From contig NC_007677.1 of the NCBI RefSeq assembly GCF_000013045.1, positions 3,392,001-3,456,000 on the forward strand: 64,000 nucleotides of DNA. The letters are read 5' to 3'. Each line of letters opens with the position of its first letter. The stretch's first letter is position 1. A program made the translations under genes and the position numbers. This DNA comes from Salinibacter ruber DSM 13855. GTDB taxonomy: Bacteria > Bacteroidota > Rhodothermia > Rhodothermales > Salinibacteraceae. This document shows positions 36,832-41,098 of this stretch, piece by piece. The notes beneath the pieces are model-generated. The model was not told where the DNA came from. It saw only the letters and a program-made list of their open reading frames with translations, and did not search any database.

Positions 36832-37590
36832 ATGTCCCTCAACGACACACAGCAGGCCCTCTGCGACGACTCCGACACCGATTTTTCGGCCCTCAGCGCC
36901 CTCTTTATCAACTGTACGCTCAAGCCCTCACCCCAGTCGTCCCACACGCGGACCCTCATGGACACGTCCGCCGCCATCATGCGGGAAAACGACGTGGACG
37001 TCGACATCGTGCGGCCCGTCGACCTCGACCTCGCACCCGGGGTCTACGGCGACATGACCGAGCACGGCGCCGATGCCGACGACTGGCCGGCCCTCTACCA
37101 GAAGGTCCTGGGCGCCAACATTCTGGTGCTGGGCTCCCCCATCTGGCTTGGCGAGAAATCCTCCGTCTGCCAGCGCGTGATCGAGCGGCTCTACGGCAAC
37201 AGCGGCGACCTCAACGAGGACGGCCAGTACGCCTACTACGGCCGCGCCGCCGGCTGCCTCATTACCGGCAACGAGGACGGGATTAAGCAGTGCGCGATGG
37301 GCATCCTCTACGCCCTCCAGCACCTCGGCTACACGATTCCGCCGCAGGCCGACGCCGGCTGGATCGGCCCGGCCGGCCCCGGCCCCAGCTACGGCGATAA
37401 GCGGGAGGACGGCTCCCGCGTGGGCGTCGACAACGACTTTACCCAGCGCAACACCACGTTCATGACGTGGAACCTGATGCACACCGCCCTCCGGCTCCAC
37501 GAGGCTGGGGGCGTCCCCGCCCACGGCAACCAGCGCTCGGAGTGGGAGGCCGGCTGCCGCTTCGATCACCCCAACCCGGAGCATCGATGA
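36832..37590 (+). CDS. NADPH-dependent FMN reductase/flavodoxin-family protein
   Basis: 252 residues. The flavodoxin fold begins ALSALFINCTLKPSPQSSHTRTLMDTS, with the phosphate-binding loop residues Lys-Pro-Ser-Pro-Gln-Ser-Ser after the first strand. ANILVLGSPIWLGEKSSVCQRVIER is the second flavin-contacting loop, and AAGCLITGNEDGIKQCAMGILYALQHLG the third. These match the NAD(P)H-dependent oxidoreductase family (PF03358). The extra C-terminal 70 residues (TFMTWNLMHTALRLHEAGGVP) are less typical. Likely a cytoplasmic quinone or azo-type reductase; substrate unknown. Confidence 0.88.
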   Translation: MSLNDTQQALCDDSDTDFSALSALFINCTLKPSPQSSHTRTLMDTSAAIMRENDVDVDIVRPVDLDLAPGVYGDMTEHGADADDWPALYQKVLGANILVLGSPIWLGEKSSVCQRVIERLYGNSGDLNEDGQYAYYGRAAGCLITGNEDGIKQCAMGILYALQHLGYTIPPQADAGWIGPAGPGPSYGDKREDGSRVGVDNDFTQRNTTFMTWNLMHTALRLHEAGGVPAHGNQRSEWEAGCRFDHPNPEHR

Positions 37591-37685
37591 CTGAGGGATC
37601 CCCAGTCGTATCTCGTCGTGTCTACAGGCACATTTCCGGGCCATCCATCAGACACACGGGCATCCAACCAGACGGAGCACCGATC

Positions 37686-38360
37686 ATGAAGGGCCGTTCG
37701 GGACCTTTCGTCGTCACACTCCTCGTGATGGTCTGCGGGGGACCGCTCTCCCTCTTCGGTCAGGACGTCCCCGCGTATCTTCCCGAAACGATCCGCTCCG
37801 ACTTCGACGCGTACACCCAGCAGGCGCCGAATCGCGCCTTTGCCCTGGGTCGTGGCGGATGGGGAAGCGCCCACGGACAGCCGTCTCTCCAGAACGCCCG
37901 AGCCACTGCCCTCTCCAACTGCCGAGAGTTTGCGGAGCAGTGCGTCGTGATCGCTAAGAACGACGAAATTGTACGCCCCGAGGATCCGTTCCCCGACGCC
38001 TCCGACCGTTCCTCCGCCCCGGAGTCTGCGACGAAGTGGTCCGGGAGAACTGCCCTCCTCCTCGCCATGGTCGGCCTCGCAGTGCTTATGGGCGGCACCG
38101 TTGTTGCCGAGCGGTACCCATTGTATCTGTTCTCAACCGGCCTCTCCGATACCCTGAGGATCCGGCTGAACTACGCCGTCGTCCTGGTCGGCTTTGTCTA
38201 CTTTCTGTGTATGATGCCGGTCTTTTCTCGGGTGGCCCAGTGGGATTTTTCGACCCTGCTCGCCTGGATCGTCTTTTCGGCCCCGATTCTTCCGGTTGTC
38301 CTGAGCGTCTTGTACCTCCAATGGTGCGGGCAGCTCACTGACCGTTTCGAGGTCAACTGA
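37686..38360 (+). CDS. Predicted membrane protein with signal peptide and three or more TM helices
   Basis: 224 residues from the ATG at 37686. It begins with a signal-like helix (MKGRSGPFVVTLLVMVCGGPLSLFGQ), then an extracytoplasmic segment with NCREFAEQCVVIAKND, whose two Cys and Ala/Asn spacing recall DUF4189-type repeats. Three hydrophobic segments follow near residues 120-140, 158-178 and 190-212 (LLLAMVGLAVLMGGTVV, YAVVLVGFVYFLCMMPV, LLAWIVFSAPILPVVLSVLYL). The last 12 residues are polar. I do not recognise the family. It is the last gene before the IS110 element and has a lower G+C than its neighbours. Confidence 0.7.
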   Translation: MKGRSGPFVVTLLVMVCGGPLSLFGQDVPAYLPETIRSDFDAYTQQAPNRAFALGRGGWGSAHGQPSLQNARATALSNCREFAEQCVVIAKNDEIVRPEDPFPDASDRSSAPESATKWSGRTALLLAMVGLAVLMGGTVVAERYPLYLFSTGLSDTLRIRLNYAVVLVGFVYFLCMMPVFSRVAQWDFSTLLAWIVFSAPILPVVLSVLYLQWCGQLTDRFEVN

Positions 38361-38484
38361 GGGAGCACGGGCCCTGACAGGCCTTACATCCTGACGCCCG
38401 GAAGGCAGTCCTCCACGTGTCTCTTTGAGTGGGCGACACATTGAGAAGCTGGTATGTTGATTTTCCCTCGTGAGAGGGGCACCT

Positions 38485-38690
38485 TCCCGGAATAGTCGGG
38501 AGAAATCCGAGGACGCTCGGACGGGAGGCGGGACCCCTGGTGAGAAGCTTTGGCCCCGATGCTTCGAGCATCGGTGAGCCCGTCAAACAGAATCAGGTCC
38601 TGCTTCCCATTTCGGTGCGTTCGACTCCGAACAGCATCATAGGGCATCGAGCCTACTTAGGACATAGATCCTGCATTTACCAGCATGGAA
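38485..38690 (+). ncRNA. Candidate IS110 bridge RNA
   Basis: The leader folds by eye into consecutive stem-loops: TCCCG/CGGGA at 38485-38501; an outer stem GACGGG (38520-38525) with CCCGTC (38579-38584) enclosing the 8-bp hairpin CCGATGCT/AGCATCGG (38556-38574); a second stem TGCT/AGCA with TTCGG/CCGAA (38601-38636); and AGGA/TCCT (38659-38672). An extra hairpin CCCTC-GTGA-GAGGG sits at 38465-38478. Within the first large loop, TGAGAAGCT (38541-38549) repeats exactly the sequence 38442-38450 at the left junction, ending in CT, and TACCAG (38678-38683) is complementary to CTGGTA (38449-38454). Both meet at the same CT. That is what a left target guide and a right donor guide should do in the IS621 model. 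Size, near 180-200 nt, also fits. Confidence 0.5.
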
Positions 38691-39689
38691 GAGGCACCGA
38701 GCAGTTCGAGCAACTTGGCGTTTTCTCTGGGAATCGATGTCGGCAAGGAGGCTTTGGAGGTCGCCTTGCGCGGCGAGGAAGGAGCCATCGCAAGAGCAAC
38801 GGTGGCGAACGATTCAGATGGTCACGATGAGCTTTTGCGCTGGCTTTCAGGCCGTGGAGCGGGGCCTGAAGAAACTAGCGTATGTATGGAGGCTAGCGGC
38901 GACTTCGAAAAGGTCATTGCCCAGCGTCTCTACGAGGAAGATTACCGAGTTAGCGTCGTCAATCCGAGGCGGATCAAGGGATACGCTTCGAGCCAGCTGC
39001 AACGTACGAAGACTGATTCTGCCGATGCGGCCCTAATTGCACGCTTCGGCTGGCGGGAAACCCCTCGGCCGTGGGAGCCGCCTACAGCAGCGGAGAGCCG
39101 GCTTCAAGAACTCACGCGAGCCCGGCAGGCCCTGAAGAAGGAGAAAACACGGACGCAAAACCGGTTGGATGAGGCAGAGGATGAGGCGGTTCGCCGTGCG
39201 CACCGCGGCCTCCTTGAAGAGATCGAACGCCAGATCGAAGATTTAGAGGAAGAAATCGAAGAGCATGTCGAGGAAAATCCGAAGCTGGAGCGACAGTGCT
39301 CGCTGTTGGAGACGATTCCAGGGGTTGGGCTTCAAACTGCTGCGATCGTCGCAGGTGAACTCGGATCTCCCGAGCGTTTCGAAAGCGCGCGCCAGGCGGC
39401 TGCTTACGCAGGCCTTGTGCCCCGTCACCGAAAGTCCGGCACCTCCGTCCGCGGCAGTCCACAGATGTCGAAGGTTGGCAACGGACGGCTGCGCCGAGCG
39501 ATGTACTTTCCGGCGATGACGGCCCTTCGGTTCAACTCAGCAGTGAAGGCATTCGGAGAACGTCTCAAGAAGCGGGGAAAGAAGAAGATGGTCGTCATTG
39601 GGGCCGCGATGCGGAAGCTTTTGCACATCTGCTATGGCGTGCTGAAGTCCGGTCGTCCCTTCGACCCGTCGCTGCATCCAGGAACCTGA
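38685..39689 (+). CDS. IS110-family DEDD transposase
   Basis: 334 residues, full length for this family. The N-terminal RuvC-like DEDD domain shows AFSLGIDVGKEALEVAL (first Asp), TSVCMEASGDFEKVIAQ (Glu) and RIKGYASSQLQRTKTDSADAALIARFG (the two Asp). A coiled-coil linker is seen at LLEEIERQIEDLEEEIEEHVEEN. The C-terminal Transposase_20 domain has LLETIPGVGLQTAAIVAGELG and the catalytic-serine region YAGLVPRHRKSGTSVRG, with GNGRLRRAMYFPAM. The gene appears intact, so the element could be active. Codon use is less GC-rich than that of the flanking genes, consistent with mobility. Confidence 0.95.
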   Translation: MEEAPSSSSNLAFSLGIDVGKEALEVALRGEEGAIARATVANDSDGHDELLRWLSGRGAGPEETSVCMEASGDFEKVIAQRLYEEDYRVSVVNPRRIKGYASSQLQRTKTDSADAALIARFGWRETPRPWEPPTAAESRLQELTRARQALKKEKTRTQNRLDEAEDEAVRRAHRGLLEEIERQIEDLEEEIEEHVEENPKLERQCSLLETIPGVGLQTAAIVAGELGSPERFESARQAAAYAGLVPRHRKSGTSVRGSPQMSKVGNGRLRRAMYFPAMTALRFNSAVKAFGERLKKRGKKKMVVIGAAMRKLLHICYGVLKSGRPFDPSLHPGT

Positions 39690-39836
39690 TATGCTTGACA
39701 TTCACCACAGCATCTGTTTGGGAGGCACACGCTCCTCCGACGCCCTGCGGACGGTCTCAGTCCCCCCAATCGTTGGAACCGTGCCCACCACTGCACGTCC
39801 ACTGCCGTGGGACTTACTGACTGGTACATCAAGACC

Positions 39837-40439
39837 ATGGTCGGCATGCAGACCTCGTCCGGCTCGCCTACAGAATCCGATACCACGGCCAATCAGATCC
39901 TGGACGTGGCCGAGGCCCACATTCAGCGGCGCGGCTACAACGCCGTCAGCTACGGGGACCTCGCCGACGAGCTGGACCTCACCACGACGGCCATTCACTA
40001 CCACTTTCCTGCCAAGGCCGACCTCGGGCAGGCACTGGTGCGCCGGTACCGGCGGCAGAGCAGCCAGACACGGGCGGCCCTCGTAGACCAGCACGAGACC
40101 CTCCGCGAACGGCTCGTGCAGTACGTCGAGCTCTTTTCGGGGATTCTGGAGGACGGTGGGCTCTGCCTCTGTGGAATCCTCGCGGCCGACGCGGAAACGC
40201 TCCCGGACAAGGTGCAACGGGAGACCCAGCGGTTTTTCGCCGAGCAGGAGGACTGGCTCACCACGATCATCGGGGCCGACTCGTCCGGGGGTGCGGGCCT
40301 GCAGGGCTGCCCCTCTCCGCGGGACACCGCCCGGGTGCTCCTGGCCGCGGTCGAAGGCGCCATGCTCACGACGCCACATCGGGATCCGGAGACGTACACC
40401 GACACGCTTCGCCGCCTCATTGACTCGATTGTAACGTAG
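39837..40439 (+). CDS. TetR-family transcriptional regulator
   Basis: 200 residues from the ATG at 39837; a GTG at 39807 and an ATG at 39846 are alternatives. The N-terminal helix-turn-helix reads ANQILDVAEAHIQRRGYNAVSYGDLADELDLTTTAIHYHFPAKADLGQALV, matching TetR_N with the recognition helix TTTAIHYHF. The C-terminal ligand domain is similar to TetR proteins of the AcuR/YxaF kind (FFAEQEDWLTTII). It lies 134 bp upstream of an AhpD-like gene and a palindrome lies between, so it likely controls that gene and perhaps itself. Confidence 0.88.
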   Translation: MVGMQTSSGSPTESDTTANQILDVAEAHIQRRGYNAVSYGDLADELDLTTTAIHYHFPAKADLGQALVRRYRRQSSQTRAALVDQHETLRERLVQYVELFSGILEDGGLCLCGILAADAETLPDKVQRETQRFFAEQEDWLTTIIGADSSGGAGLQGCPSPRDTARVLLAAVEGAMLTTPHRDPETYTDTLRRLIDSIVT

Positions 40440-40461
40440 CCGGCAGCTCTTCCACAGAGAG

Positions 40462-40485
40462 ACAGCAGAAGGAACTCCCTGCTGT
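40462..40485 (+). other. Hairpin after the TetR gene
   Basis: ACAGCAG (40462-40468) pairs with CTGCTGT (40479-40485), with a ten-base loop. It lies 22 bp after the TetR stop and could be a weak terminator or an operator. No U-run follows. Confidence 0.35.
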
Positions 40486-40495
40486 TCTGTATGTG

Positions 40496-40511
40496 CTTAC
40501 CTATTGGTAAG
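40496..40511. promoter_or_regulatory. Candidate TetR operator before the AhpD-like gene
   Basis: CTTACC (40496-40501), spacer TATT, GGTAAG (40506-40511) is a perfect 16-bp palindrome 62 bp before the start at 40574. TetR proteins bind such short palindromes, and the regulator gene ends just 56 bp upstream. Confidence 0.55.
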
Positions 40512-40573
40512 TAAATTGGCAGGACAGCCCTAATCCTCACTCACCCCCACGCATTCATTCCTTCGACCTCGTT

Positions 40574-41098
40574 ATGGCTACGACCACCGCTGAAGAGACC
40601 GCTGCCGAGCAGGTACACGAGAAGGCCGAGCAGGCCCTCGGCTTCGTGCCCAACCTCATCACGGAAATTACGGATGAGAACCCTGCCGTCGCGGACGCCT
40701 ACCTCACATCGCAGGCGCTCGTGGAGGAGGGCGGCGTGCTCTCCGCGGCCGAGCAGCAGGCCGTTATTCTCGCCGTCTCCAGCTACAACGACTGCCACTA
40801 CTGCACGAAGGCTCACGCCGTCGCCGGACAACAGGCCGGGCTCGACGCCGAGACCGTCGAGACGATTAACGAAGGCGGTCTTCCGTCCGACGATCGCCTG
40901 AAAAGCCTCGTGCGGGCCACGCGCCGCATTTTCGGCAAGCGCGGCTGGCTCTCCGACGTCGACGAGGCGGAGTTTGCGGACCTCGGCCTGGAGCGGCCGG
41001 AACTCTACGAGATTGTTGCGCTCGCCGGCATCAAGACGATCAGCAACTACGTAAACCACATTGCCGATACGGAAGTCGACGAGCCATTCCAGACGTAG
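40574..41098 (+). CDS. AhpD-like carboxymuconolactone decarboxylase-family peroxidase
   Basis: 174 residues with the CxxCxxxH motif CHYCTKAH in LAVSSYNDCHYCTKAHAVAG, the AhpD-like redox centre. The C-terminal YEIVALAGIKTISNYVNHIADTEVD completes the helical fold. It likely reduces peroxides, or takes part in a thiol redox relay. Regulated by the adjacent TetR gene by inference. This is the second such protein in the window (see 35.2 kb); the two share only the motif and general fold. Confidence 0.88.
   Translation: MATTTAEETAAEQVHEKAEQALGFVPNLITEITDENPAVADAYLTSQALVEEGGVLSAAEQQAVILAVSSYNDCHYCTKAHAVAGQQAGLDAETVETINEGGLPSDDRLKSLVRATRRIFGKRGWLSDVDEAEFADLGLERPELYEIVALAGIKTISNYVNHIADTEVDEPFQT

What the first reader, a model, noticed from the sequence alone, without database searches (positions are those of the whole stretch)
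38442..38690. IS110 leader with guide-like matches that meet at the element's own left junction
Upstream of the intact DEDD transposase is a 236-bp structured leader with four or five stem-loops, including an 8-bp hairpin inside a 6-bp outer stem. A 9-nt sequence in the first large loop (TGAGAAGCT, 38541-38549) is identical to 38442-38450 just outside and across a CT dinucleotide. A 6-nt sequence near the transposase start (TACCAG, 38678-38683) is complementary to CTGGTA at 38449-38454. Both matches meet at the same CT. In the published IS621 bridge-RNA model, the left target guide and right donor guide would do this. Chance repeats of this size are possible in 250 bp, so this is suggestive only. 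The predicted right junction would read CT followed by CACC; the nearest sequence I see is TTCACC at 39701-39706, which is a mismatch.
Basis: partly seen in the sequence, partly recalled or inferred. Interest (0 to 1): 0.75.

Follow-up and report, generated by a model that had tools for sequence, protein, structure and literature searches.

The report
Jumping gene with RNA address label
This is a complete IS110-family mobile element of a salt-loving bacterium whose built-in "bridge RNA" carries readable guides for both its insertion site and its own ends; it belongs to a recently discovered class, and its relatives' guides are aimed mainly at the tips of other, smaller transposons.

Summary
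The element is 1,267 bp, 38449-39715, bounded by CT dinucleotides. The right junction is CT at 39714-39715 followed by GTTTG, not the TTCACC at 39701.

Twelve copies from related genomes of the same genus, family and order keep the RNA architecture, with compensatory changes, while the target guides change with the insertion flanks (permutation P about 1e-5). The right donor guide changes with the left end through three states. A paralogous empty site in the same genome fixes the boundaries to the base: one CT empty, two CTs filled. A strong promoter (TTGACA-N17-TATGTT) would form only in the excised circle.

Beyond the finding, the target of this lineage is a terminal inverted repeat of abundant MITEs and IS5-like elements of Salinibacteraceae: 182 genomic matches against 1 for a control pattern.

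This is a new, well-supported member of a known kind (IS110/IS621 bridge recombinases). Targeting of other transposons' inverted repeats also has precedents.

The parts
38442..38448 (+). left target (LT) flank TGAGAAG, immediately before the core
   Evidence: identical to LTG 38541-38547
38449..38450 (+). left core dinucleotide CT = left end of element
   Evidence: same boundary in seven group-1 copies; empty-site comparison of paralogue L032/L031
38449..38456 (+). right donor (RD) sequence CTGGTATG at left end of the element
   Evidence: complementary to RDG; changes to CTAATA / CTAGTA in other groups together with RDG
38453..38458 (+). -10-like TATGTT; pairs with TTGACA of the right end only in the excised circle (spacer 17)
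   Evidence: sequence; conserved in copies; activity inferred
38465..38502 (+). two extra 5' hairpins (CCCTC/GAGGG; CTTCCCG/CGGGAG) of this subgroup
   Evidence: group 1 only
38506..38521 (+). 5' stem-loop TCCGAG-GACG-CTCGGA of the bridge RNA
   Evidence: 6 pairs, 3 with changes on both sides
38523..38608 (+). target-binding loop (TBL): outer stem 38523-38535/38596-38608, inner stem-loop 38552-38583
   Evidence: 11 pairs counted, 6 with changes on both sides
38541..38549 (+). left target guide (LTG) TGAGAAGCT
   Evidence: identical to LT+core 38442-38450; covaries with flank in 12 copies
38584..38590 (+). right target guide (RTG) CAAACAG
   Evidence: reverse complement of CTGTTTG 39714-39720; fixed register in all 12 copies
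38612..38700 (+). donor-binding loop (DBL): outer stem 38612-38618/38694-38700, which runs into the transposase start
   Evidence: 4 of 7 pairs with changes on both sides, 96% of cells paired
38631..38638 (+). left donor guide (LDG) ACAGCATC
   Evidence: identical to right end 39707-39714; LDG and right end share ACAGCATC in all 12 copies
38678..38683 (+). right donor guide (RDG) TACCAG
   Evidence: reverse complement of CTGGTA 38449-38454; three covarying states across copies
38685..39689 (+). IS110 DEDD/serine transposase, 334 aa; D18, E69, D111, D114, S251
   Evidence: PF01548 4e-28 and PF02371 2e-26; IS621 8wt6 E 1e-70; residue positions
39695..39700 (+). -35-like TTGACA in the right end
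   Evidence: sequence; near-conserved in copies
39707..39715 (+). left donor (LD) + right core, ACAGCATCT = right end of element (CT 39714-39715)
   Evidence: all copies end here
39716..39720 (+). right target (RT) flank GTTTG
   Evidence: complementary to RTG

Best explanation
A complete IS621-type IS110 insertion sequence (38449-39715) encodes a bridge RNA in its left end and a DEDD/serine recombinase after it. After scarless excision, the joined ends place TTGACA 17 bp from TATGTT, so the circle transcribes the leader (inferred). The RNA's first loop pairs with the target TGAGAAG-CT-GTTTG through LTG and RTG. The second loop pairs with the joined ends ACAGCAT-CT-GGTA through LDG and RDG. 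The recombinase exchanges strands at the CT shared by target and donor, leaving one CT at each side. Shown here: boundaries, guides, their covariation, RNA helices, empty site and protein family. Inferred by homology: transcription, RNA binding and catalysis.
For: Boundaries shared by copies with unrelated flanks. Paralogous empty site with one CT against two CTs when filled. Guide-flank covariation in 12 copies: LTG sum 77 against 56.2 +/- 3.0 permuted, RTG 55 against 41.7 +/- 2.1, none of 100,000 permutations as high. RDG and left end covary through TACCAG/CTGGTA, CATTAG/CTAATA and CACTAG/CTAGTA. RNA helices: 13 of 24 pairs with two-sided changes, 98.6% of cells paired, no shuffle and no slid control close. 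Protein. The published IS621 model has the same order and pairing (PMC11208160). An IS621 copy read with the same procedure gives a clear left match and a weak right one (P 0.018 and 0.17).
Against: No expression data. The 136-position RNA model does not hit the IS621 RNA, so homology of the RNAs rests on architecture. L034 matches its left flank poorly (5 of 7, P 0.33) and L041 its right flank (P 0.31). The truncated copies L047 and L090 do not match their left flanks convincingly. The syntenic site in the nearest species lacks the 28 bp holding the target, so the window's own empty site was not recovered.
Confidence: 0.96

Rival explanations
1. The leader is only a structured 5' untranslated region (attenuator) that controls transposase translation; the matches to the flanks are chance repeats.
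For: The donor-loop outer stem overlaps the start codon region, so an added effect on translation is plausible. Single matches of this size are not rare (P about 0.005 each).
Against: The guides change with both flanks over 12 copies and with the ends over three donor types. An attenuator predicts none of this.
Confidence: 0.02
2. The element is a decayed, immobile relic whose guides record an old insertion.
For: The exact target occurs nowhere else in the host genome, and the copies in this genome are only about 80-84% alike, so there is no sign of recent bursts.
Against: The ORF, catalytic residues, both ends, all four guides and the promoter halves are intact. Two identical copies exist in relative G009. 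The target is frequent in congeners.
Confidence: 0.15

Closest known systems
IS621 (IS110 group, E. coli) and its bridge RNA (Durrant 2024 PMC11208160; Hiraizumi 2024 PMC11208158)
   Same: Protein family (E 1e-70), RNA upstream of the transposase, order 5' stem-loop - target loop - donor loop, guide polarity, CT core, nearly the same donor left sequence (ACAGCATCT against ACAGTATCT), promoter split over the ends
   Different: Two extra 5' hairpins; RNA sequence too far apart for the model built here to recognise; donor-loop stem enters the transposase start region, whereas in IS621 it ends just before ATG; targets transposon inverted repeats, not REP
seekRNA of IS1111/IS110 elements (Siddiquee 2024 PMC11187229)
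   Same: Non-coding region gives an RNA with a stretch complementary to each target strand; natural reprogramming between relatives reported there too
   Different: Mainly IS1111 types with the RNA downstream of the gene; here it is upstream
IS1383 into the IS1384 inverted repeats; IS4321/IS5075 into Tn21-family inverted repeats (cited in PMC11208160, reference titles only)
   Same: IS110/IS1111-type element inserting into the terminal inverted repeats of another transposon
   Different: Here the guides can be read and follow variants of the inverted repeat; hosts are halophilic Rhodothermota and the victims are MITEs and IS5-like elements

Membership tests
IS110 family, IS110 group (IS621 type) | DEDD RuvC-like domain PF01548 plus PF02371 with conserved serine | tested here: met
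   D18, E69, D111, D114, S251 align with IS621
IS110 family, IS110 group (IS621 type) | long non-coding left end, short right end | tested here: met
   left end 236 bp, right end 26 bp
IS110 family, IS110 group (IS621 type) | recombination at a short core shared by donor and target, no extra duplication | tested here: met
   paralogue L032 filled against empty L031: one CT becomes two
bridge RNA | 5' stem-loop, target-binding loop and donor-binding loop in that order | tested here: met
bridge RNA | LTG and RTG complementary to opposite strands of the target, core included | tested here: met
   exceptions L034 left and L041 right
bridge RNA | LDG and RDG complementary to the element's own joined ends | tested here: met
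   ACAGCATC and TACCAG; three covarying donor types
bridge RNA | promoter reconstituted in the circle | tested here: inconclusive
   sequence TTGACA-N17-TATGTT present; activity not measured
bridge RNA | match to a covariance model of IS621-like RNAs | tested here: inconclusive
   no Rfam match; own model R1 does not hit the IS621 RNA; published model not on hand
bridge RNA | RNA is expressed and bound by the recombinase | not testable with these tools
   needs small-RNA sequencing and a binding assay
IS1111 group | RNA region downstream of the transposase, sub-terminal inverted repeats of 7-17 bp | tested here: not met
   right end only 26 bp, RNA upstream; sub-terminal repeats were not searched for separately

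The most novel reading that the evidence does not exclude
A bridge-RNA lineage of Salinibacteraceae has specialised on the terminal inverted repeats of MITEs and IS5-like transposons. Its target guides follow sequence variants of those repeats, so one RNA-guided transposon uses other transposons as landing pads and may silence them by splitting their ends.
Probability: 0.55. Interest if true: 0.5.

Novelty: new member of a known kind. Interest (0 to 1): 0.4.

Why it matters
It is a clean natural case in which all four guides, both junctions, a base-exact empty site (of a paralogous copy) and a series of reprogrammed relatives can be read from sequence alone, in an extreme halophile far from IS621. 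It supplies recombinases and guide variants that may work at high salt. It also links bridge-RNA guides to an ecological target, the tips of other transposons.

Tried and rejected
Rfam search of 37000-41000 gave nothing. The genome-contig scan returned three relatives, apparently copies already found by the genome search. A phylum-wide model search added no element type. Orphan bridge RNAs were suspected at G008:C6, G008:C14, G009:C4 and G009:C5. The two in G008 proved to be truncated remnants; the two weak ones in G009 were not resolved. The direct empty site of the window copy was sought: the nearest species has the neighbours without the element but lacks the 28 bp with the target. The idea that the window's copy itself sits in a MITE was not supported, because no mate repeat lies nearby. 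The idea that the start-codon overlap of the donor loop is new was dropped, since in IS621 the stem already abuts the ATG. Structure prediction was not run because the sequence match to solved IS621 structures suffices.

Full report
What was checked. The window lies on a 3,551,823-bp chromosome (G000:C1:3392001-3456000). I take it to be Salinibacter ruber DSM 13855 from that length, which is my own knowledge; named relatives are Salinivenus iranica and Longimonas halophila. The ORF 38685-39689 is an IS110 transposase (PF01548, PF02371), related to the solved IS621 recombinase at E = 1e-70. The catalytic residues D18, E69, D111, D114 and S251 are kept.

Ends. Fourteen loci, the window and its relatives, were compared. 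In seven copies (group 1: window, L031 and L032 from the same genome, L033, L034, L035, L036) homology starts at CTGGTATGTTGA after unrelated flanks and stops at ACAGCATCT before unrelated flanks. In the window these are CT 38449-38450 and CT 39714-39715. The strongest proof is inside the same genome: L032 is inserted in a TnpB-like gene, and an uninterrupted paralogue lies next to L031. The 40 bp on the left are identical, the empty site has one CT, and the filled site has one CT at each side. Two identical 1,300-bp copies in G009 (L038, L039) begin and end at the same target sequence, with different DNA beyond.

Guides. With the right junction corrected, all four guides of the IS621 model are present: LTG TGAGAAGCT 38541-38549 (identical to 38442-38450), RTG CAAACAG 38584-38590 (reverse complement of CTGTTTG 39714-39720), LDG ACAGCATC 38631-38638 (identical to 39707-39714) and RDG TACCAG 38678-38683 (reverse complement of CTGGTA 38449-38454). 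[quoted passage not shown] These fit.

Covariation test. For 12 non-identical copies I scored the seven left and five right flank letters (core left out) against the matching loop, counting G-U as one half. The own-flank sums were 77.0 (left) and 55.0 (right), against permuted means of 56.2 +/- 3.0 and 41.7 +/- 2.1. None of 100,000 permutations reached the observed value, nor without L033, which shares the window's target. The right guide sat in the same register in every copy. Exceptions are L034 (left, 5/7) and L041 (right, 3.5/5). Truncated remnants do not fit well: L047 on a plasmid of S. ruber M1, and L090. The right donor guide changes with the left end through three states: TACCAG/CTGGTA, CATTAG/CTAATA and CACTAG/CTAGTA. 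A natural IS621 copy put through the same scoring gave 6.5/7 on the left (P 0.018) and 4/5 on the right (P 0.17).

RNA structure. The leader folds with z = -4.65. A structure of three helices was counted on the 12-copy alignment: the 5' stem-loop, the outer stem of the target loop and the outer stem of the donor loop. Of all cells 98.6% are paired, 13 of 24 pairs have changes on both sides, and no shuffle comes close; sliding the partners by one column drops pairing to about 50%. The donor stem 38612-38618/38694-38700 closes over the transposase start codon (38685-38687). In groups 2 and 3 its 3' arm contains an ATG that may be the start. Translation of the transposase and folding of the RNA may therefore exclude each other (inference). 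IS621 is close to this, its stem ending directly before ATG, so I do not claim it as new.

Promoter. In the circle TTGACA (39695-39700) would stand 17 bp from TATGTT (38453-38458). Copies keep both halves nearly unchanged. Circle-made promoters are known for this family. Activity here is inferred.

Where these elements go. The best other matches to the window's target in its own genome, with one mismatch, are all in terminal inverted repeats of MITEs of 166 or 269 bp. Similar inverted repeats bound about 900-bp IS5-like elements (DUF4096/DDE_Tnp_1). L033 and L031 sit in such repeats, with the mate repeat 59 and about 140 bp further on. Across 14 Salinibacteraceae genomes TNAGARNCTGTTTGG occurs 182 times, against 1 for the reversed control. 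Many hits form convergent pairs 150-340 bp apart, and the exact window target TGAGAAGCTGTTTGG is a common variant in congeners. LTGs of other copies (TTAGAAGCT, TTAGAGCCT, TTAGAGGCT) fit the same repeat family, differing at its variable positions. For the window copy itself no mate repeat was found, and the syntenic locus in the nearest species lacks the target stretch. Insertion into inverted repeats of other transposons has precedents (IS1383/IS1384, IS4321/IS5075; reference titles in PMC11208160).

Verdict. It is a new member of a known kind, with unusually complete sequence evidence, and its target class makes it moderately interesting.

Noticed in passing
L059 1501-1666, L067 1501-1666, L068 1501-1769 (own genome): 166- and 269-bp MITEs with TIR T.AGAR.CTGTTTGG; related sequences recur genus-wide in convergent pairs and serve as targets of this IS110 lineage.
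   Followed up: partly
L056 1501-2401; L061 1501-2406 (own genome): About 900-bp IS5-like elements with related inverted repeats, possible autonomous partners of the MITEs.
   Followed up: partly
L090 about 1440-1730 (G008:C6): Truncated bridge-RNA remnant without transposase; its left end is preceded by ACACGCAGCAT, like an element's right end, as if left by a head-to-tail joint of two elements.
   Followed up: no
L098 about 1454-1630 (G008:C14): Left end and target loop of an IS110 copy cut off after the left donor guide; a whole target loop remains without its transposase.
   Followed up: no
L100, L101 (G009:C4:2309388-2309526, G009:C5:256629-256748): Two weak matches to the bridge-RNA model with no close transposase found nearby.
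   Followed up: no
L032, insertion in a TnpB-like ORF; paralogue at L031 3198-3869: IS110 copy splits a TnpB-like gene; the uninterrupted paralogue elsewhere in the same genome serves as empty site.
   Followed up: yes
L047 2501-3018 (plasmid pSR66 of S. ruber M1): Truncated IS110 left half annotated as a helix-turn-helix regulator; its left target guide does not fit its flank.
   Followed up: partly
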